Assembly: GCF_001653235.2 (NCBI RefSeq) | Contig: NW_019154050.1 | Location: 186,001-250,000, forward strand | DNA: 64,000 nucleotides | Direction: 5' to 3' | DNA from: Pochonia chlamydosporia 170 | Taxonomy: Eukaryota; Ascomycota; Sordariomycetes; Hypocreales; Clavicipitaceae | Part shown: positions 33,995 to 59,955 of the stretch, piece by piece | Numbering within the stretch: position 1 is the first letter of the stretch | How the letters are laid out: each line of letters starts with the position of its first letter | Program-made: the position numbers and the translations under genes | Notes under the pieces: generated by a model | Told to the model about the DNA's origin: nothing | Seen by the model: only the letters and a program-made list of their open reading frames with translations | Databases searched by the model: none

Positions 33995-35907
33995 ATGCGC
34001 TTCCAATTTGTCGCAGCAGCAGGCCTTCTGCCATTGACTGCGCTCGCGGAACCCTGCCAGCGTACGTAAACCTTCCACTGCAGGGAATTAGTACTGACCT
34101 TCACAGCATACAAGATAAGCATCACCGCCGCTAAATCCTCCACAAGATGGACGGACTGCCAGCCCGGGGAATGCAACGGAAGGATGCAGATGTTCGACAT
34201 TACCGTTAACAACACCGGTACCACCTGGGTAGTTTCTCAGCCATACGTTGCCGTCACCATTGAGGGCGACGGCCTCACAACGCACCGACATGGCAAGATT
34301 ATGCGGCTTCGACCCGGCGACTCCGCCACTGTGGAACTCGGTGTACAGACCGAGGTTGTCCATATTGACCGACCGGTCAATGCCACCGCCCACTGGGACG
34401 ACGGTGGCTCTTGCCAAGGCTCTACTACCTTTGGCTTTACGGCTTCATATGGAATCCCGGATTACCAGCCCAACGTCGCCTCTGTGAGCAACCACGAAGC
34501 TCCGAATTGGTATCGTGACGCCAAGTTCGGTATATTCATACATTGGGGGGTATATGCCGTGCCGGCATACAAGAATGAGTGGTAAGCTACGTGCCTTGAC
34601 ATTCTTCTTCCCAACTGACAATATAGGTACTGGCGGGCACAAGAGACCAAAAACTCGGATGTCTATAACCACCATCTGGCGACATATGGTCGGAATGTCG
34701 TCTACGATGACTTCATCGCCAATTTTACAGCCGCCAACTTTGACCCTAAGGCCTGGATGGACCTGATCAGCGATACTGGCGCTCAGTACTTCGTACCTAC
34801 CACGAAGCACCACGACGGATTCGCCCTATTCAACATGTCCTCGAGTATTTCGAACCGAAATTCAGCCAAGCTGGGCCCCAAGAGGGATCTCCTTGGCGTA
34901 CGTCCCCCACTTCCTTGCCATTGTCGTTACTAACACTCCTTTAGGAGCTCTTCGCGGCCGCCAAGCAACATCATCCTGAGATCCACCGCGGCACATACTT
35001 CAGCATCCCCGAGTTTTTCACCCCAGCGTCCCCCCAAAACGGTGAACTCGAAAGCGTCCACACCGGCAACTTCTACCAGGGTGCCCCGAAGAACGCATAC
35101 ACTGACAAAGAGGTCCCGTACACCGGCTTCGTTAACAATAGCTTCATTTCCGGTATCCAGCTACCCCAGATGAACATCTTGGCCAACGACTACGACACAG
35201 AACTCATGTGGTGTGATATCCCCAGCCTGTCGATGGCAGACCAGTTCGCAGCCAACTTCTTCAATAAGGCCTTCAGAGAGAATAAGCCGGTCGTCATGAA
35301 TAACCGCTGCGGCGTCGTGAGCGGCAAGAAAGTCCCGGGCGATTACGGCACCCCCGAAAATACAGCCAACCTCAGCTTCGATCCTAAGCTGTGGGAAGTG
35401 TGCCGCACCATGGATCCCAACTCTTGGGGCTACAGAGCCGATACGCCTGACTCCGCTTACATGACCCCTAACACCATCGTGTACACGCTCCTCGACGCCA
35501 TATCCAAGGGTGGTAACCTATTGTTGAACGTAGGCCCTAAGCCAGATGGTACGATCAAGGAGATCATGCAGACTAACCTGCGTGATGCCGGCAAATGGAT
35601 TAAGTCTCACTCTGAAAGCATTTTCGGTACTAAGTACTGGCCTCTTGGCAAGGGTGGATCTGGCAACTTCCGGTATACCGAGACTGATCAGGCATTCTAC
35701 ATCCACTGCCTCACGAAACCGAGTGGATCCATCAACATTACCGACCCGATCCCTTGGATGCAGGGCGATAAAGTCACCGTTGTGGGTGGCCGCAAGAATG
35801 GCACTATGGTTAGCGCTAGCGCGTCTGGTAATAGCATCCTTCTGGATGTACCTCAGGAGATTTCCGATGCAGACCAGTATGCTTGGACCTTCAAAATCAC
35901 GTACTAA
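33995..35907 (+). CDS. secreted alpha-L-fucosidase, glycoside hydrolase family 29
   Basis: Releases terminal L-fucose from glycans outside the cell. Exons 33995-34061, 34107-34581, 34627-34897 and 34945-35907 keep frame (591 residues; introns of 45, 45 and 47 nt). The signal peptide is MRFQFVAAAGLLPLTALA. A beta-sandwich-like N-terminal domain of about 150 residues precedes the catalytic barrel. GH29 landmarks: WYRDAKFGIFIHWGVYAVPA, AQYFVPTTKHHDGFALF, DTELMWCDIPS (the Asp in WCDIP is at the position of the family's nucleophile), WGYRADT, and GNLLLNVGPKPDGTI. A C-terminal domain with FRYTETDQAFYIH follows. The reading is intact. With the FucP-like transporter on the opposite strand it suggests scavenging of fucose from host or plant/fungal polysaccharide, an inference from gene content. 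Confidence 0.92.
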
Positions 35908-36240
35908 GCGCGCCTTTTTACTTCTGTAGTGTGCAGCTTCTAGAACTCGCACCAAGACTGGGCACGAGCTTCCTGTTTCGCATACGTTAGTTTGTATATA
36001 ATATTTACACATACTTTCACATCCGGTAGCGATGTTGTACCTCTGCGTGCAGTTGATAAAACTCCTCACTACATCCATGCCATCCATGGGTGGGATATCA
36101 GCGGTCGTGCAGTCAGTGTTGCTAATAATATAAACAATATGATATTGGCAATATAGACCCCCTCGCAATATCATTGTATTGTCAAGAGGTGCATATTGTA
36201 TTACCCCATATGACATTGAGCCATATTGACATTGCACAGT
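35908..36240. repeat. AT-rich repeat, related to 62876-62998
   Basis: The segment 36123-36240 contains AATATAAACAATATGATATTGGCAATAT, and TTGTATTGTCA. The region 62876-62998 has AATATAAACAATATATTGCCAATATG and TTGTATTGTATTGTCACAATAT. Both are full of short inverted ATATTG/CAATAT units and end near a TGTGCA-type motif. A MITE is possible; I could not fix ends or a target duplication. Confidence 0.45.
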
Positions 36241-36241
36241 C

Positions 36242-36801
36242 ATGGTTCAAGCGGACAATTTGCTCAACCAGCTGCTCGGCGGTACGTGGGATCGCATTGG
36301 CCCCGGAATAGACATGAAGCGGATCGTCGACAGTACGTCGAGAGTTGGGGCGGGCCATTCGTTTGCGACGAACGACAAGAACGCTTGGCTAGAGGTCGGG
36401 CCGGGCAGAGTTCTGCGTTCTATGGGGGCGTCAATATTTGACAAGAAGACAAACCAGCGGAAGCAGGCTGGCGTGCGAAGGTGGATGCGGCGGCTGCATG
36501 TATTCCGAGAAGCATTAATGCTCCTGTCACATATCTGGGAAGGGCAACCGGTTGTGGACCCGAAACGGTAACATTACGGCACTGTGACACATGGCAACTG
36601 CTCCATAATGTCTTCCTCTACGACGGTCAGGTTATGAGACCAAACAAACAGCAACGCGGCCAGATGTACCGCCAGAAGCTGGCATGGGAGAAGAAGAGGC
36701 GACAGGCCAGAAAGGGACGGAGGGAGCAGATGGATGATTGGGTCAAGGTGGCGTTGAGTGATTGGTTGAGGAGAGAGACTACCTTGCTGCTTATGGAGTA
36801 G
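36242..36801 (+). pseudogene. remnant of a telomere-linked RecQ-helicase-type protein, N-terminal part
   Basis: Starts MVQADNLLNQLLGGTWDRIG, continues with GVRRWMRRLHVFREALMLLS and HIWEGQP, stops at 36571, and resumes in the next frame with PETVTLRHCDTWQLLHNVFL. This order (GQPxRGxE/PET followed by LRHxNT and xNVFxxDG) is what I associate with the region ahead of the helicase domain in fungal subtelomeric TLH/DUF3505-type proteins, and it parallels parts of the ORF at 53723-57316. The end (RPNKQQRGQMYRQK and onward) is unrelated basic sequence. It is followed at once by TAGGGTTAGATTAGGGTTAG (36800-36819). Confidence 0.5.
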
Positions 36802-36921: not shown

Positions 36922-37156
36922 TGTCACGGGCTATGCCCGATGCTGTGGACCCGGCTCTGCCGGGCCCGGAGCTTCGGCGCCGTGCAGACGGTCGGTTGTG
37001 TAATTGGATTAATTTCGCCTAAGTTGCCACTGCAACTTAACTGCGCAAGCTCGAGGCGAGCCTCGAGCTTGCTCTTCTCCTTTCTTTCTCCCTAGCTTTA
37101 GATAGACAATCATACGGCACCCTTATGTTGAACAAACAGCGGCGCAGCCTCTTACA
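36922..37156 (-). repeat. LTR-like repeat, left arm of an inverted pair
   Basis: Read on the minus strand it starts TGTAAGAGGCTGCGCCGCTG and ends CATAGCCCGTGACA, i.e. TG...CA ends. 37046-37156 matches 44904-45010 in opposite orientation at high identity, including a near-palindrome AAGCTCGAGGC-GA-GCCTCGAGCTT. The outer half (36922-37045, GC-rich with several short hairpins) has no partner at the right arm. No 5-bp target duplication is seen. Confidence 0.6.
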
Positions 37157-37396: not shown

Positions 37397-40300
37397 ATGC
37401 CACGCCGTGCGATTACTCTTGAAGAAAGACGAAAAAGAAAACGAGACTATGCTCATGCACGTCGACTGAAGAAAACACTGGAAGTGTACAGCGAATGTCA
37501 GCAGCTGTATGCGCATGATTCAACAGTAAGACTAATTGACAATGAGCAGCGGGACCCGCCTAGTCCCGATTGTCAAAGAGTCGAGTTAGGTATTCAGAGC
37601 CCAAATCCTCAACTGCATCACATGTCTTCAGAGTAACCCATATTGATATTAACTATGTACAAACTCCTAAAATCTGTTACACGCATCCGCAAATCCGTGG
37701 ATTCAATGAAAGCATGACTGACAAATACCATGTGAAGCTACCCTACATGTGGAACCGAAACTTGTTGGCTCAATTCATCACCACCTGGTGTCAAGCAATC
37801 AACCAATAGAAACTCGCAGCACAACCTCTGCGCCGAGCCTGGTGTTGCCATCAGCGTTCGTTCAGACATTAAATCAGCCAATAGTTGCCGCAGACCTGAA
37901 TTTGTCGCCTGTTGTCAGATGTCATCAACAGTTGCTCCCTAAACTTGATTGTCCTCAGACAGATCTCGAAAATCATGCCAAGCCCGAGTCTCAAGCGCAA
38001 GCAGTTCTGCCACTGTGTAGGAGTTCGCAGACCTCGTGGACAACATTCGAGCATCCGGTAGCCCCATTTCAGCCGCGCCACTCATGTGCATCTAACCGTG
38101 AGGCAGACGTCTCATCACACCATCCCCCTTATCACCCATGGCAATATTTTGGTGTTGATACTGGACACCACTCTTCAAGGCACATTTCTTTAACCAGTTC
38201 CCCTCTGACATCGCGTGCTGAAGTCGCGTCGCCATGCCACTCATCATCCCGCTTGTTTCTGACAGGCTCGCCAGCCATCGCAGCTTCATCTTTTCCGGAG
38301 CCTCTAGTCTCAGTGCGGCTCTCCCAGCCGTCCCGTCTAAACCATCCTAATACTACACTTCGAGCTTTTTTGCAGGCTATCTTCGCACAAGAAACTGACG
38401 GCAGTCGCGCTTTTCTTGACGCACAACAGAAAGTGGACGATGGGGTTTTCCGAACCTTTTTTGACGTCAACTGTCGGTGTAAGCTTTTCGTCGCCGTGAA
38501 TTAATACATACGGCTAACTGTCTTCTAACATTCTACCCTCCAGGCTCCTCCGAGACTCCATATGATGAGCCCGAGAACTCCCACACACTGCGGGAGAGAG
38601 TCCAATACCTCCAACGATATCTCCCTCCAATCTCGACCACATTCGGTCCTCGCGGCTCATATGACCCGAGTGCTTCTTTCCCGCAATGGCAGAGCTTTCT
38701 CTCCGATCCACCTGCTGAACCACTTTCCTTCACCAAGACACAAAACAACTTGCCAGAATCTGTGATATCTGTTGAAAGACGATGGGATATTGACAGTGTC
38801 TGGTTTGGGGCCAAGAGCTTACAGGCGATACGGCCTCCAAACGATTTCCGCCTCTCTTTTTTGCCACCATTTGGACGTAACATCTCGACGGATCAGGTCA
38901 TTCAGCCTCATGGGCTCAACTTGGCCAACACTCGGCACATACTGCTGGGTGCGTTCAATGCTTGTAGCGTCCGATTTGAAGTCTTCCTTTACTTTCCTGG
39001 GACAGTTCGCAGCCCTCGTTCAAAGACTCGATCCTCAAAAAATGGCCTCTCGCTTGAACGACAGAAAGATCTCTATGACAGGATCATCATACCAGCAGCG
39101 TATGAGACGATTTCTGACCCTGTACGACAAGAGATTCCTCGATCTTATGACATTGCCTACGCAAAATCCCGCGCGTTTCAGGAGAAACCCGGCACCGGTC
39201 GTTGGCTGCCAGACGATGAGAGCCGTGCCTTTCAGCTCCGGTATACACTTCCTGCTCAAGACCTCCCACTCTTCTGGAAATCTGTTGTTGAGAAGGCCAA
39301 CGCTGTTGAGGTTGCCACTCAACGTGGTGAAAATATAACCTATTTCCGGAATCCCCAACTTCTCTTTCAAGCACACGACCTAAAGAACACAATTGCAAAG
39401 TCGAACTTGAACGATACCCTGACGCTTTTCCAAGATATAGTTCTCGCTGCGCTTGACCCGGATCACCTCGATCTTCACTCCTGTTGGCTCGATGTCGGGG
39501 CTCGTGACTATGTGTCGACTTCGTCACCTTCGACCTTCGCCAGATCGGAATCGTATACGCTCCTTTGGAAGAGTCATTGCCTCGCTGGCCTCGAGCAGCA
39601 ACTGTCGTCGCTCGCGACTGAGAGTCCCATCGCATCTAGTCACTTTAGCTCATTCCTACTGCGGGATGTAGGCACGTACGTCTCCAAGGCAAAATCTTTG
39701 CGAGGCGTCAACCCTGGCCATCCGGACGCTCATCAGCCTTGTATTATCCGCGCCAAGGCATACAACTGTAACAAAGAAACCTTTTCAGTTATGCACAGGG
39801 ACTATCGTCTCTTCGGTTCTGGCTTCCTCCCGCTGCTTGCCTTCGACGAAGCGATGATTCGAGACCTTGCAGTCAACAACCAGAACCATCAGCGCGCTTC
39901 TGTCCCGCAGCTAAACCGCCCCGCGCTCATGAAGGCTTGGGAGGCAAATAAGCGGCATCTGCACGCGATCTCCGACGCGATAGCTCTCAACAGTCACGGT
40001 GTCCGGAGAGAAGTTACCTTCCGCCTTGATGTGATCCTGTCAATGTGGGCTAACAGCTACTTTGATCCAGCTCAGGAGCCGCACACTGGTCCGCTGACGC
40101 AAATGATTCAACTTACTGCACAAGCCGCGAACCATGCTCCTTTCTGGGTCGTCCCGACAGCGGATATGAACGCTCTTATTCTTACTCAGGCCGCCCGTTT
40201 CGTCGCGCCACTTGATTATTGTTTTGATGCTGCTTCTGCCGCCGGTGCTTCATCTGAGGCAGCACAATCCACGGATTCCTCTGTCCGCCGAATATTCAGT

Positions 40301-42043
40301 TTCTATACCGCACAACTGCTTTCTCGCCTACTGGCCCTATGCCTCACCAGCGAACAGCAACTCAAGTATGACAACTGGATTTGGCTTACGTGCTGGAAAA
40401 TTCGCAACAACAGCTCCTCACATCGAAAGAGTATGCTGGAAAGGAAAGGGCTGGGTCTCGGCAAAGTCATCACGGCCTCGGGGATGCTTTGGATTCCGCA
40501 GTCTCACATTGACTGGAGGAGTGGGTATTTGTCTCTCGAGACACTTGTTGAACTATATATACCTCGAAGCCCCATCCAGGCCCGGGTTTCATCTCAAGCA
40601 AATGTTCAATCCCTCACTGCATCAAAAGTGTCCATTGAGTACTATTTACACGTATGGTTACGCGACTCTCGGACAGCATTCGAACATGGACAGCGTGAAA
40701 AGGCAGAGAAGCTTGCCCATCGGGCTGCAAATCTTGCTGCCCAGGAGATCGCTCGGGCATACCATCAGCATCTCCTGTTGAAGCTGGAGGCATACTGGAG
40801 TCGAGTTGCCGACATGCGTGGAAATAGAAGGCGACAACCGCTTAGACGCATACAACAAGGATTGGAGGAGTCCTCCAATCATCTAGGGCGGATCGTAGAT
40901 GCACAGACGATTTGGGAAGTCTACCTTGAGGCCTGGGCTGTGTTTGCGCAAGTTGGCCCAATCGTTGACGTATATCAGATGCCCAGAGGCGTACCTTGTT
41001 GGCTGACAACGAGAAAGTATGTGCCACCAAATGACGGCTGGTCCAATTTTGTGTTTCAGCATCTGTTCAACCGCCCAAGCCGTCCGAGGTGGCATGAGCT
41101 CCACTTCCTCCAGCTTTACCGGTCTTTCAAAAAGATATGGATCTCCATTGATGGGCTTAACAACCCGTTTGATGATAAGTTCCGTCGCCTCATAGGGAAC
41201 TATATCTTGGTTACCTTCAACAACTCTTTGACGAAGGAGGTTGGCACTAATCACACCCCAGGGAGCTGGTACGACGGAAAGCCACCATTCTTTCAGATCC
41301 AGTTCTGGGCACCCTACTTTTCACCGCCTCCAATTGATCCGCAATTAGGCATGCAGATCATACCCGGCCCAATAGTGGCAACTGCGAGGGACTTTCACCA
41401 ACGGGCAAGCGCTTGCTTTCAGCTGTGGCCACGAATAATGAGCCCTCAACGGCTGCACGAGAGTAGCCACACGGAGAAAACTAATTTCTGCAAGAAAGCA
41501 CTACAAAATATAATTGCACTAGTTGGGCCACACTGGAGCTGTGAGACGGATGATTTGCCAAATACACTGCTATGGGGCATCTCCTGCCAGAGTCATCGAC
41601 AAGGGCCATACGAGGATCATTTTCGCCTCCCTCTTCCCGCATCATATGTCAAAGGAGATTACCGTGAGACTAAAATTTGTCGCCCAACAATTATCCTGCC
41701 AACTCGCAATAATGTCATCGCTTTAGCGGAGGCTGTAGAGTCTGTTTCAGGTCTTGGAGTAGGAGTCTTGAAACTGCTTCCTTGGATCCGCGAAGCTCTT
41801 GGTAATGGCGGGCAACAGTATACCATACTCAGTCATCTCGATGAGAAACAAAAAGTAGTTGAACCTAATGCCCATTCGGCGTCGCTGTTGCGGCGGTTCT
41901 TATCTCAAAAGAACCCACCGCAAAGATTGATAAGTGAGGACAACGGAAGAGAGAACAACTCGGAAGACATCGAGCCTGAAGACGGGCTAAGCTCGATCGA
42001 CTGGAGTGACGACGACAGTGATCTTGCACTAGAAGTTATATAA
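37397..42043 (+). CDS. very large unrecognised fungal protein (inverted-repeat-flanked gene)
   Basis: I do not recognise a named domain. The last intron is clear (38479-38543, GTAAGC...CTAAC...CAG) and joins DVNCRC to SSETPYDEPENS. The terminal exon 38544-42043 alone encodes about 1,166 residues. Upstream, ATG 37397 begins a strongly basic segment (RRKRKRDYAHARRLKK), probably linked by one more intron (donor about 37589, acceptor near 37808) to a Ser/Pro/His-rich exon. That upstream exon structure is tentative. The C-terminal 1,000 residues alternate conserved-looking blocks: FRNPQLLFQAHDLKNTIA, LHSCWLDVGARD, CIIRAKAYNCNKETFSV, HAPFWVVPTADMNALILTQ, SGMLWIPQSHIDW, RGVPCWLTTRKYVPPND and KPPFFQIQFWAPYFSPP. 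No signal peptide, transmembrane helix or classic catalytic motif is apparent. The tail is acidic. A diverged partial paralogue follows at once. The basic N-terminus hints at a nuclear or nucleic-acid role, unproven. Confidence 0.7.
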
Positions 42044-42230
42044 ATAGATAGCTAACACCCAATTGAAGTAACTAAAGTACTAATTTTATTTGTCCCACTT
42101 GATGCAGCGGTTTTATTCTTGATTGAAGACAGATTTAGAGGTTAAATTCTGCGTACACCAACACGCTGACGAACCTCCTCCCATCACACCCCAGTTCGCC
42201 AGGCACTTTTAGCTCCCGCGTGATTCCCGC

Positions 42231-44232
42231 ATGGGTCCCACAGTCAGAGATGGCAACATGGAGTCTAAGACAACAACAACCACGAAGACGCATAATGCTG
42301 GTCACCCTGATTGCAGACAGCTGGGAACCATCCTGGCCAAGACATATAGCTGCAATAAAGAGCTCTTTGGTGTCATGTTCAGCCACTACGGCTTGTACAA
42401 CTCGCCTCACCTAGCTCTGCTAGCTTTAACTCAGGATATAATTCAGGATCTTAACTCTATGACCAAGGATCGAGAACGAGTTTTCACAACTCGGCGCTGT
42501 CGAGAGTCTATTTCCCGCGCCTGGGAAGCAAACAGACGGCACGTTGCGGCAATCTCGGATTCTCGGGGTGGTATAAACTATGGAGCTCGGAAGGAAGTTA
42601 CGTTTTGCTTGGGAACCATCTTGAAAGAATGGAGCGAGGGCCATTTTGATCCGGACCGGCATCCCCACACTGGTCCGCGAACCCACATTGTACCGGCGGC
42701 CGGCGCTGACTCGGATGAGCATTGCCCTTTTTGGATTGTGCCCACCAAGGACATAAATGATCTTATCTTCACGCAGGCGGCGCGGCTCATTCTTCCGCTA
42801 GATCACTTGTTTCTGGAAGCAAAACTCATTAGCAACGACGAAACATCTCTCTGTAACACTGGAGAGCAATAAACTAGCTGAACGCGTCATTCGGTTATCT
42901 GCTGAAGAAATTGCGCGTGCATACAACCGACATCTCCTGGCTAAGATGCAAGCGTATTGGGATCGCGTGCGGAGCAGCATCGGTCGAGATCTACTGCCAG
43001 CTCTTACGCGACTGCAAGAGGCGCAAGAGAATGTGGTGGCGGAGAGGAGCCGGATCGTCACGGCCCAGACAATATGGGAGATCTACCAGGAAGCTTGGGC
43101 TGTTTACGCCAAAGTTGTTCCTGACGAAGATGATGATAACACGCACATGCCAATGGAGCTCCCATGTTGGATGACCACCCGCAAGTATCAACCGCCGAAA
43201 CATAATTGGACGGATTTCTTGGATCGTGAGGTTTTTTTTCGACCTGCAAAACCAAAATGGAACAAGATTTATTTCCTTAAAGTTTTAAGGACATTTAGGA
43301 GAATATGGTGCCCTATCAAGGCTTATGCGGGGCGATTTGAGCAGCACATTAAACCTTTTCTCGGTCGCTCTGTAATGGTGACCTTCAATTGCAACCAAGC
43401 GAAAGAAGTTGGTACAAGTCGCACGCCTCGGACATGGTACCATGGAAAGCCAAGTTTTTTCCAGATGCAGTACTGGGCGCCGTACTTCTCGCCGCCCGAA
43501 GATAACCGTGACTTGCGCGTGGAGTGTATGCAATCTGAAGCTCCGAGAATACTGACCGCCATCCGCTTCCAAGACTTAGAACGAGTTGTTCATCAGCACT
43601 GGCTTTGTATAATGGATCGAACGGAAGACTTGCAATCCAATAGCAGGGAAGTGGTGAACAATCATTGCCGACGGGCGCTAAGACGAATGACTCTATTAGC
43701 GGGCCCAAACTGGGGTAACGAGGATCAGCTAGACTACATCGTACCGTGGCAGCTGGGAACGGCAGATGCATTCCGAGTTCCACTACCACCAGCAGTTGTC
43801 GCTAAGGCCGGATCCGACTCTCTTTTGAGTACGCCGACGATTTTGCTACCCACGAGAGATGCCGTGGTGAGTTTGTTGAGAAAAATAAGGTCCTGTCCAG
43901 GTCTCACGGAAGGAGTCAAGAAGCGGCTTAAGTGGGCGAGGCGCCGGCTTGACAATGACGGACACCAGTACGACATTCCCAGTCATTTAGAAGCTAAAGC
44001 CGAAGCAGCGGAATTAACAACCCAGTCTCCATCACTCTTACGACAGTTTTTGGCACAAACAGAGCCTCCAGAAAGGCAAATTTTTGCCGAGGATATAGAT
44101 GAAGCGGAAACAGGCTCACAGCTGTTTGTCAGGGAGGACAGCCAATCTGAGCCAGAGCCTGAGTCTGGAGTTGAGTCTGAAACTAACAGCTTAGAGCTAT
44201 GGGATGAACTCGCAGGGACTGTTGACACATAA
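42231..44232 (+). pseudogene. truncated tandem paralogue of the large unrecognised protein
   Basis: Parallel in order and strand to the gene at 37397-42043. The first part (to the stop at 42872) reads GHPDCRQLGTILAKTYSCNK, AWEANRRHVAAISD, ARKEVTFCLGTILKEW and CPFWIVPTKDINDLIFTQAA. After a frame change the second part (from about 42858) reads LAERVIRLSAEEIARAYNRH, TAQTIWEIYQEAWAVYAKV, LPCWMTTRKYQPP, SFFQMQYWAPYFSPP and PTILLPTRDAVVSL to the stop at 44232. Relative to the upstream gene it lacks the N-terminal half and an internal block of roughly 250-300 residues (the region with SGMLWIPQSHIDW). Residue identity by eye is near half. The C-terminal part is a long intact reading, so a shortened product is conceivable, but a deleted copy is more likely. 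Confidence 0.7.
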
Positions 44233-44903
44233 GACGTGACATCAACCAGATCGCTTATCGTTAAGGTCGAATGGAACATACGTCGTAGAAATTTCGACTA
44301 GAGTGAGATTGAGACGTGATGGTGATGGCCCCCTCGTCTAGTCTGCACATTAGTCTTACATTAATTTAATATAATGCCGATGGGCCATTGATGCCGCAGG
44401 TTTGCCGACCACGTTTTACTGAACCTCTTAGTTTAACAACCGTGTGTTGAGGGCCTGGACGAATATCGAGTGGGCCACGTCGATGCGGTTTGCGAAGAGC
44501 ATTTCGTCAACCTTTTAACGAGGAGCACTAATGTTATTGTTTAATGCTCGCGGAATGAAATCGTGTTGCTACATACGATCTGTATCGGCCTGACTCTTTT
44601 GGACGAAAAAGGGAATATACCCAATCGGAGTCGCTGCGTACACCAGGGTTGTCCTTTTTGGACCAAAAAGGTCTTCTTATTTCCCCTGTCACATTTCATC
44701 ACATGAACCAAGCCCCCTTTTCATTAAACAGCGGGTTTTATACAGTTACCAAGCACCATGATATCGTAGTGGTATTCATAGCAACCTCATTTCTCGATGG
44801 ATATCACCACTGGCCTCACTACCAAAGGCTACTGAATGTCACATTCCCTTCCATAAAGCGAGCATCGCAAGCTACAGCTTGTGTGGCAAGAAAGCGACTA
44901 AGG
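44233..44903. other. non-coding spacer with a perfect short palindrome
   Basis: No supported gene. CCTTTTTGG-A-CCAAAAAGG at 44653-44671 is a perfect 9-bp inverted repeat with a single central base; a related TTTTGGACGAAAAAGG lies 55 bp upstream. Confidence 0.5.
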
Positions 44904-46389: not shown

Positions 46390-46625
46390 CTTGTGGCTGC
46401 AGTTGTTCCGTCGTAAGCTGAGCCTTAAAATGATCCATCCACTGCTTTCTTTATCACTCACGCAAGGATCGTGACGATGAAGGGCCAAATATGTCCCGGC
46501 AGACTCTTTTCTAACCCTTTTGTACTCTCACTACTCTAAGACTGATTGTTTGCTCAGATCGTGTCGGCAAGGGCATTTGCAGCAAGCTGTGCCTGTCCGC
46601 TTACACTGCTGTAGAGTCGGAAATC

Positions 46626-49600
46626 ATGTCAGATCCCAAGAAGTATACAGTCGGCTGGATCTGCGCCATCCGCACAGAGTTCGTCGCCGCCCAAGCGTTT
46701 CTCGATGAAACACACGAACAGCCGAAGGAACAAGACCCAAACGACTCCAACAACTATGCCTTGGGTCGTATCGCCCATCACAATGTTGTGATAGCGTGTC
46801 TCCCTGGTGGAGAATACGGCACGGCCTCAGCAGCTGGTGTCGCGATTAATCTGTTACGAAGCTTCCCAACCATCCGCATTGGCTTGATGGTTGGGATTGG
46901 AGGAGCTGCACCAACCAAGAAACATGATATACGGCTCGGTGATGTTGTCATCAGTTTGCCCGGTAACGGCAGAGGAGGGGTGTTTCAGTATGACTACGGC
47001 AAGACGATACAGGGCCAGGCCTTCGTCGAAACTGGTTTCTTAAATCAACCTCCAGAGTTGCTGCGAACGGCTGTGGAGGCGGTTGCGGCGAAGTACGAAC
47101 TGGATGGCCACAACCTCGTCGAGAGTGTGAACAAGTCTCTCGATAAGAAGCCGAGGCTGCGCAAGAAGTATTCTTGCCCCACTGGCAAAGATATTCTATA
47201 TAAGTCAGACTTCATACATTGTGAAGACAGGCTGGACGGATGTGAAGCCTGCGGCAGTGGTCCATCCGTTGTTGTGCTACGACCTGAAAGGGGAGAGGAT
47301 GAAGACAATCCCGCCATTCATTACGGTTTGATTGCCTCTGGAAATCAGCTGATGAAAGATGCATTACTGAGGGAAAAGCTTGCTATCGAAAAAGGCATCC
47401 TATGTTTTGAAATGGAGGCAGCAGGTCTGATGAACCGCTTCCCGTGTCTTGTAATTCGTGGGATATGCGACTACGCGGATACTCACAAGAACAAGGAGTG
47501 GCAGGGGTTTGCTGCAATGACAGCTGCGGCGTACGCGAAACGCCTCTTGTCTCAAATAATCTCAACTAATATTGAGGCCGAAAAGAAGGTCGCAGAGGTC
47601 CTTAATAGCAGTTAGTCCTTCCAGAGCACTTCGGTACTTGTCCTTATTCTGATAATAAACATGATAGTTCTTGAAAGTGTGTCCACGAATGAGGAAACAA
47701 CTAAAAATATGAAATCGGATCTCGACAAACAGAAAGATGTTTCCATCCTTGACTGGCTCACACCAATTGACTATGGCCCAAAGCAAAGTGACTTTATTGC
47801 AAGGTGGAAGACAGGTACAGGGCACTGGTTTCTAGACTCGGAGGCATTCAGTTCTTGGCTAGAGAGTTCTAAGCAGACTTTGTTCTGTCCGGGAATACCT
47901 GGTGCAGGAAAGACAATTCTGACCTCTGTTGTGATTGATAACCTTTTGACAAGGTTTCAAGACAACACAGATATTGGGATCGCTTATCTCTACTGCGACT
48001 TTCGGCGCCAGAATGACCAGCAGATTAATCACCTTCTCTCCAGTCTATTGAAACAGCTAGCCGCGAGGGTCCCCGTCCTACCCGAGGTCGTTAGAGATAC
48101 TTATAATCGCCACAAGCTAGGAAGAACAACACCGTCACTGAAAGAACTCTCCGACTCCCTCCGATCCGTGACAGCCGGGTACTCAAGAGTATTCATCGTT
48201 GTCGACGCCCTAGATGAATGTTCTAAATCTGATGGCTGCCGAAACCGAGTCCTCTCCGAGCTCTTCCGGCTCCAGAGGCAAAATGGACTTAATATATTAG
48301 CCACATCTAGATTCATTCCCGAAATTGCCAATCAATTTCAAGGCTGCAGTAAGACAGTAGAGATTCGTGCGAGCTCGGAGGACATAGAGAGGTACTTCGC
48401 GGCCCAGATATGCCAACTACCACCATATATCCAGCAAGATGTGGACTTGCAGAATGAGATAAAGCAAGGCATATCTACATCAGTCGACGGAATGTACGTA
48501 TGCTATTCTTTTGCACAGCGATAACACTGACAAGCTTACTATCCTGCAGGTTTCTCTTGGCACAACTATACATCAATTTGCTGCAAGATATGTACACGCC
48601 CAATGAAGCTCTAGAAACTCTTCAAGTCTTCCAGAAGCAACGTCAAGGGCCAGGTGAAGATGGGAGGGTGGAGATGTTGGCCCATGCATACAAGCAAACT
48701 ATGGAGAGAATCAACCAACAGGGATCAAAAGCGAATATGCTGGCAATGAAGGTGATGTCATGGGTTACATACGCAAAGAGAGAGCTCACTAAATTGGAAC
48801 TATTGCATGCCGTCGCTACGAAGGTTGGCATGTCTACTATTCGTCAGGGAGATATGATGGACATCGATGATGTCTTATCTAAATGCTCAGGATTAATTGT
48901 TATTGACGAAAAGAGCGATGTAATCCGAACAGTTCATTACACGTTGCAGGAATACCTCGAGCTGACCCTGCTAGATTGGTTTCCGGATGCCAAAATTGAT
49001 ATCACTAAAACTTGTCTTATTTATAATTCGTTAGAACTATTTACGAGTGGACCATGCGAGGCAGACGAGGATTTCGAGAACCGGCTTCAAGAGTATCCGC
49101 TTTACCAGTATACGGCACAGAACTGGGGGTGGTATGCCCGCGAGGCACCGACTTTATCCGCCGAAGTTGCGACATTTCTACAGTGCGATAATCTAGTAGA
49201 GGCCTCGAGTCAAGCAATGCTATCTATTAAACTGTACTCAGTATATTCGAGAAACAAATGGGACAGCCAACGATATCCGAAACATATCAAGGGTTTGCAT
49301 GTGGCAGCACATTTTGGACTCAGTGAGGTCCTTGAAATGTTACTCGCTGCGCAAATACCAAACCAACCAGATAGTTACCGCCGTACACCTTTGTGGTATG
49401 CTACTAATAGCGGAATGATTGATGCAGTCACTGTTCTGTTGAAGGACCAAAGGGTTGATCCAGATTTCAGAGATAACGAGGGCCGGACAGCGCTCTCCTT
49501 GGCCGCAGAGAAGGGTTACGAGGCGATTGTTAAGCAACTCCTAGACACGGACCGAGTCGATCTTGAATCGATAGATGACAAACACGGGCAGACGTCATTA

Positions 49601-50404
49601 TCGTGGGCTGGCGAGAACGGGCACGAGGCGGTTATGAAGCTGTTAATCTCGAAAGGTGCCAATGTTGACTCTTGTGACAACAATGGCAATACAGTACTAT
49701 CTCTTGCTGCCGAGAAAAGCCTCCTACCAGTAGTGGAGCTGCTAATTGGCCGAGGTGCTTGCGTAAACTTTGCCAGTGATGATGGCTGTACACCGCTATC
49801 ATGGGCCGCCGAGCAGGGAGCTATCGAGGCCGTCAAGCTACTGATTGGGAATGGCGCTTGTGTAAAGTCTGCCAGTAAGACTGGTGATACGCCACTATCG
49901 GGAGCTGCCGAGTACGGGCATGGAGAAATTGTGGAGCTGTTGGTTGAAAATGGAGCTCATACGGAATCTGTTGACGAGGAGGGCCGGACTCCGCTTTCGC
50001 GGGCTGCTGGGAATGGGTTCCTGCTCGTAGTCGAACTGTTGCTCGAGCACGGGGCTAATGTAGACTCTGCTGATAACAAAGGCCGGACTCCGCTTTCGCG
50101 GGCTGCTGGAAATGGATTCCTGCCCGTGGTTGAACTGCTGCTGGAGCACGGGGCTAATGTAGACTCTGCTGATAACAAAGGCCGGACTCCGCTTTCGCGG
50201 GCTGCTGGGAATGGGCTCCTGCCCGTAGTTGAACTATTGCTCGAGCACGGGGCTAATGTACAGTCTGCCGATAAGAAACCCTGGACACCACTTCGTTGGG
50301 CCATAGAAAATGGTCATAACATCGTCGCCTGGCTATTGCATCGAGAGATGCGCGGCTGGAATGACGAGACCTGTAAGAAGACCGATCATTTCCAAGAGAT
50401 TTGA
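46626..50404 (+). CDS. NLR (STAND) protein: nucleoside-phosphorylase-like, NACHT, ankyrin repeats
   Basis: Probable intracellular non-self recognition / programmed-cell-death sensor. Exons 46626-47610, 47668-48493 and 48550-50404 keep frame across two short introns (57 and 56 nt), giving 1,221 residues. Residues 1-325 are a PNP_UDP-type phosphorylase-like domain ([70 protein letters not shown]). The linker has [22 protein letters not shown] follows: Walker A GIPGAGKT near residue 404, Walker B-like [11 protein letters not shown] near 500. Then a winged-helix/ALDC-type stretch (LQEYLELTL) and about 11 ankyrin repeats from residue 840. The last repeats are nearly identical at the DNA level. The first intron contains the stop that would otherwise separate the PNP and NACHT parts. 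No lesion seen. Confidence 0.88.
49982..50278 (+). repeat. three near-identical 99-bp ankyrin-coding units
   Basis: GGCCGGACTCCGCTTTCGCG recurs at 49982, 50081 and 50180, exactly 99 bp apart. Each unit encodes a 33-residue ankyrin repeat ([14 protein letters not shown]...[15 protein letters not shown]). Differences are a handful of bases over the block, whereas the earlier ankyrin units have diverged. This is the high-internal-conservation pattern of fungal NLR repeat domains. Confidence 0.92.
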
Positions 50405-53722: not shown

Positions 53723-56700
53723 ATGAGTTTGCAACAATCTACTCTTGATGAGATCATTTCACACGAAAAACATTATGTGTCTCTTATGGAGCCGTTTGTG
53801 CATCTTGATCAGTTCCGCGTCGTGGTTTGTGTGCGATGCTGCTTTGCATGTGTAGCGAATGAAGTGGAGGCACACTTGCGCATTCGCCACAAGGACGTGC
53901 CATTGTATGAGCGACGAAGAATCATTGAATCTATTCAGGGGCTCCCAAATATTGTCCGAACCCAGGCAGAGCTGGTCACATTTCAATTTCCTCCTCCTAC
54001 ATCGGAACCAATACCACATCTTGGGCCACCTAGTGCCGACGCTCTGGGATGCAAGTCTTGCTCATACATTGCCCTCAGTGTACAAGAGGTACAAGCCCAC
54101 TGCCGCAATAAGCATGGCTGGGTGAATCCAAGGAAGGCAGGGAGGCCAGCAAGCATGCAAAGTTCGAGCGATTCCGATATGCCATGGAGAAAAGGAGTGC
54201 AGTGTCAACGATTCTTCCGGTCGAGAGCCGCTAGCGCGTGGTTTGAGGTTAATCGTAACCGGCAATTTCCAAGTCAGGTTCAGTGTAGGACTGCGCCAAT
54301 TCTGCAAAGTCCCTCATCGTCTGATGTTGAAGAAACCTCCCGCATGTCTATTGCAGCTGACCTTCACTTTCGCGCTGTTTTAGGTCGAGAACAGCGACGT
54401 ATTGGCACAAAAGTTAATCCTTCATCACTTGATGGTGAGAACTTTGTGTCATCCAACCCTTGGATGCATAGAACACAGTGGTTGCAGACATACCAAAATT
54501 CTCAGCGCGACACACTCCGAAATTTAATTCAGCTACCGGACCACATCATCATAACAGGCCAAATTGCTCATCCAGAAGGTGACAACGGTCCCATATTCAA
54601 CAGTTGTATCAATGAAGAAAAAATCTCTTACCTGCTTGGTGCTATGGACTTCTTGCTTGACCGCTGCGAGAGGACCGTTCACCACACAAGCCGCCATGTT
54701 CTTTGTTGGCTGCAGAGTAATAATCAGAAGACCTGTACACGGAAGACATTCTCACTTGTCGCGAAGCCGGCTAGTAAACAAAGGTATCGGCGAATATGGA
54801 AGTACTTCATCTCCTTCATACTCCGGGTTTCTCAGCTCCCAGAGGAAATGCGGAGGGGTTTATTAGGCAATCGGCTGGAGGAGGCTTTACACAGTCAAAT
54901 ACTCAGCCTCCTAGATCGCACCACACGTCATATGATCGACCGCTTTATAAATTTAGGGTCAGAGCAACAAGCGCTGAACAGGTGCGAAATGACTGCTGCA
55001 GCTAGTATGTGCGCCACGGGATGCTCCGATTCTGGCACCGGTGCTCGACGTGGTTCCGGCGGCGAAACCACCAGCAATGAAACCGACGACGACGAGACCG
55101 AAGATGAGAGTAGCACCTCTAGCAACGGCGACAGCCAAGACTCTGGAAGTTCGAACTATGCACTCGATATGACTAGAGCTACGAACTTGCGGAGACACCC
55201 GGTCGACAACTTTTATGACGAAGAGGTCATACAGTTGCTCTTTGGTATATGCATTCGAGCCATGACACAGCAGTTCGTGGATGGCCAACCCAGCTCGACG
55301 CTACTGGTGTACTTCAGCGGCATTCTAGGCTTCACGCGCGATTCAAAGGGGTTCTTATCAGCCAAACATTATACTCCAATATTATCAGCCCTTATTTATA
55401 TTCAGCGACTCTTATTTCTCGAATACGCATTGCCTCTTCAAGCATACTCATTCATCGGAATACCTAAAAGACCACACCATACACAGCATGAACAACTTGA
55501 TCGTATCCGACAGGTATATATGGTTACAGGGTCGCAATCCCCATTCGATGAGATGCATGACCTGCGATATTGCGGGCGGAATATTGCCCGCACAGACTTG
55601 CCGTCATTTCTCTTACGGTGGAGTGATGATGGCAACACTCTCTACTACGGAGATGATTTCAAAGTGACGATGGACGTATTTCGTGGTCTATCCAACTACT
55701 TTGTCACGAAAGCTGAGGACCTTTGTTCACGGCTAATGCTTGGTCTTTCCCCTGATGTTGACTTAAACAAAGTAAAGGATAACTTAACTAACTCTCAAGT
55801 TGGACACTCGTTCGTTATGAATCCCGATAATGGGCTCGAAACACTGTACATTGATTTGCTACGTCGAGTCTGCAACTCTCGAGAGTTTGTTGACCAAGGA
55901 GTGTGGCGCTGGAAGGCTGTCTCACATTATCGTGCGGAAGTGGTTTCCCTCGAAGAGGCGATCCTGGGTGCATGCCATACTGCTTGCGGCCAGGCACCTA
56001 GAGCAGAGGATCTCATAAACCTGGAATGTGAGAATGGTTCGTACACAAAACGTGGCTTTTACATCTGGAATGGCTTCATGATATATATTTTACGACATCA
56101 CAAGGCAAAACGCCGCACAAATCGTGAATTTGTGGTGGCTCGCTTCCTACCCGGCCGCCTAGCTCGCGCAGTATATCTATATCTTGTGTGGATCCGCAGA
56201 TTAGATGCATTGCTACGTTACGAGGAGATTTTATGTCAAAAAAGTGGGAATGACGATTTGCATCAGCGTCTATTGTTTCGTACCAACGGGAGAGTCTGGA
56301 AAGCAAACCGCCTTACAAGAATCCTTGAGCAAGCCACTACCATAGTGTGGGATCAGCGAGTAAATATCCGACTCTACCGCCAGCTTTCAATTGGAATTAC
56401 GGAGCGACATGTACGCGAAGTTCATATCCCATTTAACAGGTTTGATGACCGGACATGCGAGGCAGACTTGAATGTCGCATTCGCCTGGCAAAGTGGTCAC
56501 CGTCCACTTGAGCGAGGTGTAACATATGGTCTCGACGGTGCCTTCCCTTCGGTTCTGCAGCCTTCACTGCTACGGGCCTATCAATGGGTGTCTACACGTT
56601 GGCATGAATTTCTGCATCTCGCAAGTAAGTCAGAGCCGGCGAGCCCTTTAATTTGCACCGTGCAACCCGGTTCCTGCCGCAAACGAAAATCCTATAGACA

Positions 56701-57316
56701 AGAAACGGAGCTGCTGCCTCCAGCCAAGCGAATAGACAGCTTCTCAGTGTCTCATATTAGCCAACTTACACAGAGTCGTAATTTCGAAAATTTAGCAATA
56801 GGTTTGAGGACCACCCCAACGAGCTGGGATGCTCTCGGTACCAAAAGTAGCACGCCGAATGCCACGAAGCCAGAACAGCGCGATGTGGTGTGCTACCTTG
56901 CCAACTATGAAGTTTTGCTCTGCCTTATTTGTAAGATTGCCATAATGCCAGGAAAAGGCATTGAAGCTCATCTTCGAAATAACCATCAAATTAAAGGCCA
57001 GAGGTTGCGAGAAATTCTTTTGCAATGCGCAGCATTGCCTGTTCAAAATCCAGGGACGATGGAACTGCCAATGACAGGGACCAGCGCGATACCACAACTC
57101 CCAGTATATCGCGGCTATGGTTGCAATTATTGCTCGTACTTAACGACCAATCGTATGAGCGTTATTTCTCACCATTCCAAGAGACATGATGCTACCTCAC
57201 GCGATGGCCACGGGTGGGCTAGCGTATTTCTACAGACCTTTATGAGAGGGAAGAGCACGCGTTATTGGGTTGTGAAAGACGCCGCATCGACCGACGAAAT
57301 TTCACCTAGTTTCTAG
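53723..57316 (+). CDS. C2H2 / DUF3505-like protein related to telomere-linked helicase N-termini
   Basis: 1,197 codons without a stop. N-terminal tandem C2H2-like fingers: VCVRCCFACVANEVEAHLRI with RH, and CKSCSYIALSVQEVQAHCRN with KH. Then MPWRKGVQCQRFFRSRAASA with WFEV, and WMHRTQWLQTYQNSQRDTLR. A long helical region contains FLDRCER-type text, QVGHSFVMNP, RYHHAK-like LRHHKAKRRTNREFVVARFL, and FRTNGRVWKANRLTRILEQA. It lacks any RecQ helicase domain. From about residue 1045 a second pair of C2H2 fingers starts (VLLCLICKIAIMPGKGIEAH, CNYCSYLTTNRMSVISHHSK), i.e. the beginning of a second copy fused in frame to the end of the first. Assignment to the DUF3505/TLH group is from motif memory. A DNA-binding role is plausible from the fingers. 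Confidence 0.65.
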   Translation: MSLQQSTLDEIISHEKHYVSLMEPFVHLDQFRVVVCVRCCFACVANEVEAHLRIRHKDVPLYERRRIIESIQGLPNIVRTQAELVTFQFPPPTSEPIPHLGPPSADALGCKSCSYIALSVQEVQAHCRNKHGWVNPRKAGRPASMQSSSDSDMPWRKGVQCQRFFRSRAASAWFEVNRNRQFPSQVQCRTAPILQSPSSSDVEETSRMSIAADLHFRAVLGREQRRIGTKVNPSSLDGENFVSSNPWMHRTQWLQTYQNSQRDTLRNLIQLPDHIIITGQIAHPEGDNGPIFNSCINEEKISYLLGAMDFLLDRCERTVHHTSRHVLCWLQSNNQKTCTRKTFSLVAKPASKQRYRRIWKYFISFILRVSQLPEEMRRGLLGNRLEEALHSQILSLLDRTTRHMIDRFINLGSEQQALNRCEMTAAASMCATGCSDSGTGARRGSGGETTSNETDDDETEDESSTSSNGDSQDSGSSNYALDMTRATNLRRHPVDNFYDEEVIQLLFGICIRAMTQQFVDGQPSSTLLVYFSGILGFTRDSKGFLSAKHYTPILSALIYIQRLLFLEYALPLQAYSFIGIPKRPHHTQHEQLDRIRQVYMVTGSQSPFDEMHDLRYCGRNIARTDLPSFLLRWSDDGNTLYYGDDFKVTMDVFRGLSNYFVTKAEDLCSRLMLGLSPDVDLNKVKDNLTNSQVGHSFVMNPDNGLETLYIDLLRRVCNSREFVDQGVWRWKAVSHYRAEVVSLEEAILGACHTACGQAPRAEDLINLECENGSYTKRGFYIWNGFMIYILRHHKAKRRTNREFVVARFLPGRLARAVYLYLVWIRRLDALLRYEEILCQKSGNDDLHQRLLFRTNGRVWKANRLTRILEQATTIVWDQRVNIRLYRQLSIGITERHVREVHIPFNRFDDRTCEADLNVAFAWQSGHRPLERGVTYGLDGAFPSVLQPSLLRAYQWVSTRWHEFLHLASKSEPASPLICTVQPGSCRKRKSYRQETELLPPAKRIDSFSVSHISQLTQSRNFENLAIGLRTTPTSWDALGTKSSTPNATKPEQRDVVCYLANYEVLLCLICKIAIMPGKGIEAHLRNNHQIKGQRLREILLQCAALPVQNPGTMELPMTGTSAIPQLPVYRGYGCNYCSYLTTNRMSVISHHSKRHDATSRDGHGWASVFLQTFMRGKSTRYWVVKDAASTDEISPSF

Positions 57317-58061
57317 GTGTAGAAATTTGATTTCGGAAGATCCACACAGCTGGTACTGTCCTAGGAGTGCGGGCCGACCCGCAAGTGGATCGAAGACAAC
57401 GGCGGACTTGCCGTGGACAGAAGGCATTCGTTGCCAGCGATTCTTCCCTTCCAGGGCAGGGAGCCGATGGTTTGAAGTGGGTCGAGGTCTTAAAGCGATA
57501 GACTCGAAAAAACAGCCTGGTATTACGCGGTCGTCAATTATTGACCTTTCAGGCTTGCCAGACAAGCCATCGTCTCTAACACCTGAAGCTTACGCCCATG
57601 TGAAGGCTGTTATGGAACGAGAGGAGAGGTACCATCAAATAGCAAACCAACCAAGAAACAGCAGCAAAGGCCTCGGGGAGCAATCTTTCTCATCTACAAC
57701 CCTGTGGCTGGAACGGACGCAGTGGCAGTCGACCTTTCGCGACAGCCGGTGGGACGTTTTGCGTGCGCTTACGCGATTACCTAACCGCCGCTCTCTAGAT
57801 GCAGACTTCGTCATCGGACAGGGAACTCGGGATGGAGATCCAGACATCTTTAGCCCTTCCATCGATGAGCAAAAAATAGCCTGCATTATTAGCGCTATGG
57901 ACCCTGTGTTGGACCGGTGTGAACAGACCGTACGTCGCACAAGCCGCAGTTTATTGTGCTGGTTGCGGAGTAATCAAATAAACTCCTGCCACAACAAGGA
58001 GTTTACGCTCGTGGCAGAGGAGAGCAGAGACCCAATCAACTACACGACTTACACTGGTTGA
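57317..58061 (+). pseudogene. second, broken copy of the C2H2 / DUF3505-like protein
   Basis: Continues the second copy that begins inside the preceding ORF: after the frame break it reads GRPASGSKTTADLPWTEGIR, CQRFFPSRAGSRWFEV, LWLERTQWQSTFRDSRWDVL, IDEQKIACIISAMDPVLDRC and TSRSLLCWLRSNQINSC. Each block has a counterpart in the first copy in the same order. It ends at 58061 after KEFTLVAEE, where a small inverted-repeat element begins. Adjacent copies are roughly half identical, so the duplication is old. Confidence 0.7.
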
Positions 58062-58072
58062 TCAACCTAGTG

Positions 58073-58175
58073 TATTACACTCAACTAAATCAACTAAATC
58101 AGGACAATCCTGACTAATCAATTAAACTAAATTTGGGCCTCTCGTGTACGTGGATTTAGTTGATTTCAGTGTAAC
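58073..58175. repeat. small inverted-repeat element, possible MITE
   Basis: Left arm TTACACTCAACTAAATCAAC (from 58075); the right arm is the complement of GTTACACTGAAATCAACTAA (ending 58175). The interior is AT-rich. It follows the point where the second C2H2/DUF3505 copy loses similarity, so it may have interrupted that gene. The target duplication is not resolved. Confidence 0.45.
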
Positions 58176-58772
58176 TGTTGATGGTTAAAGGGCTGCACAT
58201 TTGATCTCGAACTTAGCTTCAGGGTAGGTTCGGCTGCGGGCGAGACGACAAGTCAGCTTCCTCCCCCTATTCTACATCCGTAATTTGTATTCTAACCAAA
58301 GTGCCTTAAGGTAGAGCCTCCGCTACTGCGTCGTGCGTCTGTTGATCCTTGGTTGATTGACTTCGGCATCTTTTTACCCATCTTGGAACCGTATTGCCAT
58401 GTTTTGAATGCCGTGTAGCGGAACGATGGCTGATGCCTAGTTTATTGAAATATCTTCCTGCTAGCTAGCACCTGCTTGATCATCACATAACACCTATTTC
58501 TGGCCATCTACAACAAGTATCATCGCTTCTTTTCTGTAAGGGGTCGCCGGTCGGCCCCAGTAAGTTCCGTTAGGGGACACGCGGCTCATTCAGCTAACAA
58601 AAAAGAGAGAGCAGACGTTCTCGAGGGGTGGACTCTCTACTATGGTGGTTAACTGGGCAGTCAATGCTCAGGGGCTGGTTGTGAGACCCTCATTTGGTGG
58701 CGTTATCAGCATTGCCATCAACCCAGGTGCACGGCAACGAGTTAGTCCGTGACACTTTCACATTATGTCTTT
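58176..58772. other. non-coding region ahead of a truncated hAT
   Basis: No gene. CATTTGGTGGCGTTAT at about 58690 recurs at about 62283; a shared short motif of unknown origin, possibly from transposon termini. Confidence 0.35.
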
Positions 58773-59912: not shown

Positions 59913-59955
59913 CCGAGATAGGGCCACTACTAATCGTAGCGCAGCCATTGAGGAC

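What the first reader, a model, noticed from the sequence alone, without database searches (positions are those of the whole stretch)
37397..44232. Tandem genes for a very large protein family with no recognised domain
The upstream gene encodes more than 1,300 residues, 1,166 of them in one exon. A second copy next to it retains the same ordered blocks at roughly half identity despite an internal deletion. Blocks such as LHSCWLDVGARD, CPFWIVPT(A/K)D(I/M)N, SGMLWIPQSHIDW, PCWxTTRK and the FF(Q)xQ(F/Y)WAPYFSPP segment are kept, so the family has been under selection. A basic N-terminus and acidic C-terminus flank it. It lies among transposons and an NLR, so it could be a mobile-element protein, a defence factor or a selfish gene.
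Basis: partly seen in the sequence, partly recalled or inferred. Interest (0 to 1): 0.75.

Follow-up and report, generated by a model that had tools for sequence, protein, structure and literature searches.

The report
Undescribed mobile-like fungal gene family
A soil fungus carries one intact and one broken copy, side by side, of a very large gene that matches no known protein family, and related copies in this and other fungi look like DNA that multiplies near chromosome ends and is sometimes mutated by the fungus's defence against repeats.

Summary
Gene 1 (37397-42043, three exons, about 1,477 aa) is an intact member of a large fungal protein family with no match above cut-off in Pfam, NCBIfam, PHROGs or PADLOC, and no Foldseek match for a fair full-length AlphaFold2 model (pLDDT 79.7, pTM 0.75); single domains could not be tested. 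Copy 2 (about 42243-44229) is a relic: it lacks the first 390-410 core residues, has an internal deletion and changes frame. It is no local duplicate: part is 99.5% identical to a piece on another contig, but only 40-46% to gene 1. Relatives occur across Hypocreales; a distant branch reaches Pseudogymnoascus, and another carries a C-terminal chromodomain. Past purifying selection is seen (dN/dS 0.25-0.5 in four comparisons). One sharp 3' edge is visible; no convincing terminal repeats. Best reading: a selfish, mobile-like gene family encoding a nuclear, chromatin-tethered enzyme of unknown chemistry. Main rival: a subtelomeric host family spread by ectopic recombination.

The parts
37397..37589 (+). 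Gene 1, exon 1: start codon and basic N-terminus (MPRRAITLEERRKRKRDYAHARRLKK...)
   Evidence: the start resembles 'M(G/A)RRA.T..E.R' or 'MAPRPVSIEETRRRKR' in relatives (by eye). Intron 1 (37590-37737) is my choice among 11 in-frame options and is not proven.
37738..38478 (+). Gene 1, exon 2: low-conservation linker ending ...FFDVNCR|C
   Evidence: P0075 of Metarhizium guizhouense reads across the next splice (DIHCRCSSETPRDEPENSH), seen by eye.
38544..42043 (+). Gene 1, exon 3: the conserved core and the acidic C-terminus, no stop inside
   Evidence: intron 2 (38479-38543) lies at the matching place to the annotated intron of the C1 gene.
42243..42869 (+). Copy 2, first piece (family residues from about 390-410 to about 585); broken
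   Evidence: tblastn; 42417-42868 is 96% identical to C18.
42863..44229 (+). Copy 2, second piece (family residues about 740-1171) in another frame after an internal deletion
   Evidence: 99.5% identical to C18:39343-41051 over 42863-44571.
44230..44571 (+). 3' trailer of copy 2, ending at a sharp edge (...GAAATCGTGTTGC|TA) shared by three copies with different or diverged flanks
   Evidence: window homology stops at 44571 (C18) or 44582 (C2), and C18-C2 identity falls from about 0.94 to about 0.76 at the same point.
36230..36801 (+). Remnant probably related to an OrsD-type gene, upstream of gene 1 (context, not part of the family)
   Evidence: 36233-36637 is 94-95% identical to DNA about 1.3 kb from OrsD matches on C1 and C26; weak protein match to the window's OrsD ORF, E 2e-5; no Pfam match.
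36922..37156 (+). 235-bp dispersed repeat (LTR- or MITE-like) abutting the gene 1 region (context)
   Evidence: Many copies at 80-100% across the genome.

Best explanation
Gene 1 is an intact member of an undescribed superfamily of about 1,300-1,570-residue fungal proteins that behaves as selfish, mobile-like DNA concentrated near chromosome ends; copy 2 is a dead relic of another member. Proposed mechanism (inferred): the protein enters the nucleus, binds DNA through its basic or AT-hook-like N-terminus, in one branch also binds histones through a chromodomain, and uses an alpha/beta N-terminal half carrying the conserved Asp102, Asp104, Asp337 and Glu510 among conserved Lys/Arg residues as a metal-dependent nuclease or strand-transfer centre that helps copies of its own gene enter heterochromatic, subtelomeric DNA. 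The host's RIP system then damages repeated copies. Shown: conservation, selection, copy distribution, RIP, arrays, and one discrete 3' edge. Not shown: catalysis, DNA binding, transposition.
For: Own genome: 17 matches, plus C29 and a weak C16 match, about 10 loci. The three loci on megabase contigs (C1:158.5k, C2:199-202k, C2:6,410k) lie within about 0.2 Mb of a contig end (lengths). RIP signature in 4 of 10 fetched pieces (C2:199372 and three C14 pieces; GC 0.24-0.36, composite index +0.65 to +1.47) against -0.47 to -0.85 in the other six. Near-identical pieces on different contigs. Discrete 3' edge at 44571. Silent divergence 0.10 in the family gene against 0.51 in the adjoining ORF of the same C18-C2 pair. 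The tree of 40 chosen rows puts the three Pochonia members in three mixed-genus sets; Ilyonectria P0006 and F. solani P0007 are 91.5% identical while both are 78% from F. oxysporum P0009. Intron 2 is shared by gene 1 and the C1 gene, so spread is at DNA level. Chromodomain in P0165 and P0169; the two main branches align by hhalign (prob 100, E 2e-41). In 18 members of all branches D102, D104, Q216, K228, K301, D337, K363, Y427, K431, K490, R508, E510 and R572 are the same in every filled row; in the 75-row alignment of gene 1's branch they are at 95-100% where listed.
Against: No target-site duplication or 5' edge found and no convincing terminal repeats: 14 inverted pairs listed, two of which (18-19 nt, 83-84%) span gene 1 or the C1 gene but are unlike each other. 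Copy number is low. In C18 and C2 the 3' edge lies at homologous places beside paralogous ORFs, which segmental duplication plus gene conversion could also give. Head-to-tail arrays are more typical of ectopic recombination. The model matches no known fold, nuclease or other. By identity gene 1's closest listed relative is in Metarhizium guizhouense (84% over 35%), as vertical descent would give. The genus-mixing tree has no housekeeping benchmark.
Confidence: 0.5

Rival explanations
1. A subtelomeric host gene family with a cellular (perhaps chromatin) function, amplified and homogenised by ectopic recombination and gene conversion like other telomere-linked families; RIP simply hits any duplicate.
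For: Head-to-tail arrays on C18 and C15 and four Fusarium gene models that each hold parts of two family copies head to tail (P0001-P0003, P0104, read by eye); C18 and C2 share a flanking ORF; dN/dS 0.25-0.5 in four comparisons; OrsD matches, a multi-copy family (30 matches), within 15 kb of 4 of about 10 loci.
Against: Sharp 3' edge and fivefold lower silent divergence than the flank; gene 1 and copy 2 are only 40-46% alike, so they are not local duplicates; patchy, genus-mixing tree.
Confidence: 0.32
2. Passenger gene of a larger mobile element, for example one marked by an OrsD-type gene, a Helitron or a Starship.
For: Fused gene models: P0005 with a part like the window's OrsD ORF (E 2e-15), P0040 with OrsD, P0123 with a Helitron Rep/helicase, P0116 and P0128 with hAT. 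Probable OrsD remnant upstream of gene 1.
Against: Of about 10 family loci, none lies within 10 kb of a DUF3435 match (42 matches; nearest about 22 kb, C29) or a Helitron_like_N match (25 matches; nearest about 12 kb, C29); 6 of 10 have no PF12013 match within 15 kb.
Confidence: 0.13
3. Allorecognition, defence or spore-killer-type selfish gene.
For: Fast diversification, subtelomeric or accessory location, an NLR-like gene nearby.
Against: No toxin, kinase, nuclease or NLR domain by Pfam and no PADLOC match; a basic N-terminus and a chromodomain branch point to DNA or chromatin.
Confidence: 0.05

Closest known systems
Chromoviral integrases and other chromodomain-bearing mobile-element proteins (recalled)
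   Same: Chromodomain at the C-terminus in one branch (P0165, P0169); subtelomeric, repeat-rich placement.
   Different: No reverse transcriptase, integrase or RNase H domain in gene 1; the chromodomain is absent from gene 1's branch as far as tested; no fold match at whole-model level.
Telomere-linked and OrsD-type multi-copy fungal gene families
   Same: Multi-copy, often near contig ends, sometimes neighbours of this family.
   Different: No OrsD or helicase domain in gene 1.
Starship captains (DUF3435) and Helitrons
   Same: Large fungal mobile elements with a key enzyme, matched in the same genome.
   Different: Neither signature domain is in gene 1, and no match to either lies within 10 kb of the loci in this genome.

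Membership tests
Known eukaryotic DNA transposases (hAT, MULE and others in Pfam) | Recognisable transposase domain | tested here: not met
   0 Pfam families at E<=1 for the gene 1 ORFs; none for P0018 at E<=5. Two of 45 further hits carry a hAT domain, as fused gene models.
Known eukaryotic DNA transposases (hAT, MULE and others in Pfam) | Terminal inverted repeats and target-site duplication | tested here: inconclusive
   No convincing pair: two weak 18-19-nt pairs span gene 1 or the C1 gene but are unlike each other; the edge motif has no inverted counterpart nearby with fewer than 3 mismatches; only one edge could be mapped.
Helitron | Rep (Helitron_like_N) plus PIF1 helicase in the protein | tested here: not met
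   one of 45 further hits, the fused model P0123, has them.
Helitron | 3' hairpin and CTRR end | tested here: inconclusive
   At the mapped edge the fold is no better than shuffles (z 0.25 and -0.23) and the edge reads GTTGC|TA; void if the edge is not a true terminus.
Retrotransposon or retrocopy | RT domain, or intron loss in copies | tested here: not met
   No RT in gene 1; an RT occurs only in the fused model P0075 among 45 scanned. Intron 2 kept in gene 1 and the C1 gene.
Starship cargo | Lies in an element with a DUF3435 captain | tested here: inconclusive
   Nearest DUF3435 matches about 22 kb (C29) and 33 kb (C16) away, none on C18; Starships can be larger than that (recalled).
Selfish repeated DNA | Copies recognised as repeats by RIP | tested here: met
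   4 of 10 fetched pieces strongly RIP-shifted. RIP also hits duplicated host DNA, so this is necessary rather than sufficient.
Anti-phage-type defence protein | Match to a defence family | tested here: inconclusive
   0 PADLOC matches for 4 proteins; that library covers prokaryotic systems.
Chromodomain proteins | PF00385 | tested here: not met
   Absent from gene 1; present in distant relatives P0165 (E 1e-11) and P0169 (E 1e-9).

The most novel reading that the evidence does not exclude
The family is the sole enzyme of a new class of eukaryotic mobile element: a DNA-level, chromatin-targeted element without long terminal repeats, whose 1,300-1,570-residue protein carries a previously unseen catalytic fold (candidate metal ligands D102, D104, D337, E510) and which inserts preferentially beside existing copies and subtelomeric genes, building head-to-tail arrays of unlike members.
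Probability: 0.2. Interest if true: 0.85.

Novelty: new variant of a known kind. Interest (0 to 1): 0.55.

Why it matters
A multi-copy family of very large proteins spread over Fusarium, Metarhizium and relatives, named almost only as hypothetical or uncharacterised in the listed hits and with no domain or whole-model fold match found, is either an unrecognised class of mobile element or a new telomere-region protein. Either way it would change how repeats and accessory regions of these fungi are annotated, and the conserved residues make its chemistry directly testable.

Tried and rejected

Papers: eight searches of the held open-access library. I saw only the listings and starts of abstracts and opened no paper. 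Searches for seven locus tags found nothing.

Full report
Where it is. The window is G000:C15:186001-250000 of a 44.2-Mb assembly. Contigs C1 (8,615,222 bp) and C18 (143,712 bp) have exactly the lengths given for the contigs of two family proteins of Pochonia chlamydosporia 170, VFPPC_12036 and VFPPC_11392; the species is inferred from that. No protein identical to gene 1 was listed, so it may not be annotated in the searched set.

The gene. The core ORF runs 38483-42043. My model has exons 37397-37589, 37738-38478 and 38544-42043, about 1,477 aa. Intron 1 is my choice among 11 in-frame options; intron 2 lies at the place matching the annotated intron of the C1 gene. The protein starts with a basic stretch and ends with an acidic one. 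Many relatives are 1,370-1,570 aa long.

The second copy. Copy 2 aligns to gene 1 residues 410-581 (46%) and 740-1171 (40%), in two frames. It is 99.5% identical over 42863-44571 and 96% over 42417-42868 to C18:39343-41913, which carries 410 bp more at the junction, and 91-96% identical to C2:6409747-6411502. It is therefore a decayed relic, closer to the C1 member (53-58%) than to gene 1.

The family. A single-sequence search gave 103 proteins at E<=1 (only 7,992 candidates scored) and a profile search 147, of which 120 were listed. Every organism named in the listed rows is a hypocrealean genus (taxonomy recalled); many rows have no name. A distant paralogue on C12 (28% identical) led to 38 more proteins, one from Pseudogymnoascus and three (P0165, P0166, P0169) from a further branch at about 30% identity. 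P0165 and P0169 end in a chromodomain. The two main branches align by profile at probability 100, E 2e-41 over 766 columns. In an alignment of 18 chosen members of all branches, D102, D104, Q216, K228, K301, D337, K363, Y427, K431, K490, R508, E510 and R572 are the same in every filled row; in the 75-row alignment of gene 1's branch a few rows depart at most of these (for example D104 0.96, D337 0.99), while R508 and E510 hold in all 75. These polar positions all lie in the first half of the core, which the model shows as alpha/beta; the second half is mostly helical and keeps W, P, G and R positions. That this is an active site is inference.

Selection. Nei-Gojobori dN/dS is 0.25 for gene 1 against a gene-1-like fragment on C18 (225 codons, 3 with stops set aside), 0.28 for copy 2 against C2 (383 codons), 0.33 for C18 against C2 (382 codons, 1 stop; not independent of the former), 0.50 for a C1 exon 1 fragment (114 codons, 1 stop) and 0.88 for copy 2 against C18 (2 silent, 6 replacement changes: too few to judge). 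The family was under purifying selection; some copies are now decaying.

Signs of mobility. About ten loci exist in the genome (lower bounds; the C16 one is weak). Three lie on contigs over 1 Mb and all three are within about 0.2 Mb of an end (C1:158.5k of 8.6 Mb; C2:199-202k and 6,410k of 6.6 Mb); with random placement this has a probability near 2e-4, though the limit was chosen after seeing the data and contig ends stand in for chromosome ends. Four of ten fetched pieces (C2:199k and three on C14) are strongly RIP-shifted. On C18 four pieces of at least three members lie in the same orientation between 39.7k and 55.7k (47.0-48.9k was not read), and four Fusarium gene models hold parts of two family copies head to tail (P0001-P0003, P0104; read by eye). 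C18 and C2 share the 3' part of the gene, its trailer and a further 390-406-aa ORF; identity falls abruptly from about 0.94 to about 0.76 at window position 44571, where the window's own homology also stops, and silent divergence is 0.10 on the gene side against 0.51 in the ORF. This marks one edge of a unit with its own history, by independent insertion or by gene conversion. In a quick tree of 40 chosen members (SH-aLRT support; two long outer branches flagged) the three Pochonia copies fall into three mixed-genus sets, and among the hits I labelled by name Ilyonectria P0006 and F. solani P0007 are 91.5% identical over 1,371 residues while both are 78% from F. oxysporum P0009. That fits horizontal transfer, but no housekeeping benchmark was available. 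Against this, gene 1's closest listed relative by identity is P0075 of Metarhizium guizhouense, 84% over 35% of the query, as vertical descent would give.

What it is not. No convincing terminal inverted repeats (two weak, mutually unlike 18-19-nt pairs span gene 1 or the C1 gene), no Helitron-like 3' hairpin at the edge, no retrocopy (shared intron). DUF3435 (42 matches) and Helitron Rep domains (25 matches) do not lie within 10 kb of the loci; the nearest are about 22 kb and 12 kb away, both on C29. OrsD-type genes (30 matches) lie within 15 kb of four of ten loci, OrsD or OrsD-like parts are fused to P0040 and P0005, and a probable OrsD-related remnant lies upstream of gene 1; shared subtelomeric placement may explain this.

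Verdict. A real, undescribed (by the eight literature searches listed), selected protein superfamily with mobile-like behaviour. The selfish-element reading is favoured at about even odds, the subtelomeric host-family reading is the main rival, and the chemistry is unknown.

Noticed in passing
window 53723-57313 and 57276-58058: A 1197-aa ORF with two OrsD (PF12013) domains and an adjoining fragment 40% like part of it; 30 OrsD matches exist in the genome.
   Followed up: partly
window 58025-59913 and L054:5637-7525: A 1.9-kb segment 99.7% identical to C18:42637-44525; in C18 it continues into sequence about 70% like the window's hAT region, so it is probably part of a recently moved hAT-type element broken in the window.
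   Followed up: partly
window 46515-50401: NLR-like gene region: PNP_UDP_1 domain, weak GPIID winged-helix match and ankyrin repeats, in at least two reading frames.
   Followed up: no
L043:294-1466 and L054:1073-2293: Paralogous 390-406-aa ORFs of no Pfam family downstream of the C2 and C18 copies, 64.5% identical in protein with dS 0.51 and dN/dS 0.44; fast-evolving.
   Followed up: partly
G000:C2:810-1463 and G000:C10:810-1463: Helitron_like_N matches at the same distance from two contig ends, suggesting telomere-linked Helitrons.
   Followed up: no
window 17608-19191: MULE transposase ORF with a sub-cut-off FAR1 DNA-binding match.
   Followed up: no
window 59854-61722: PIF1-like helicase ORF without a Helitron Rep match in the window.
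   Followed up: no
window 34945-35904: Part of an alpha-L-fucosidase gene just upstream of the repeat cluster.
   Followed up: no
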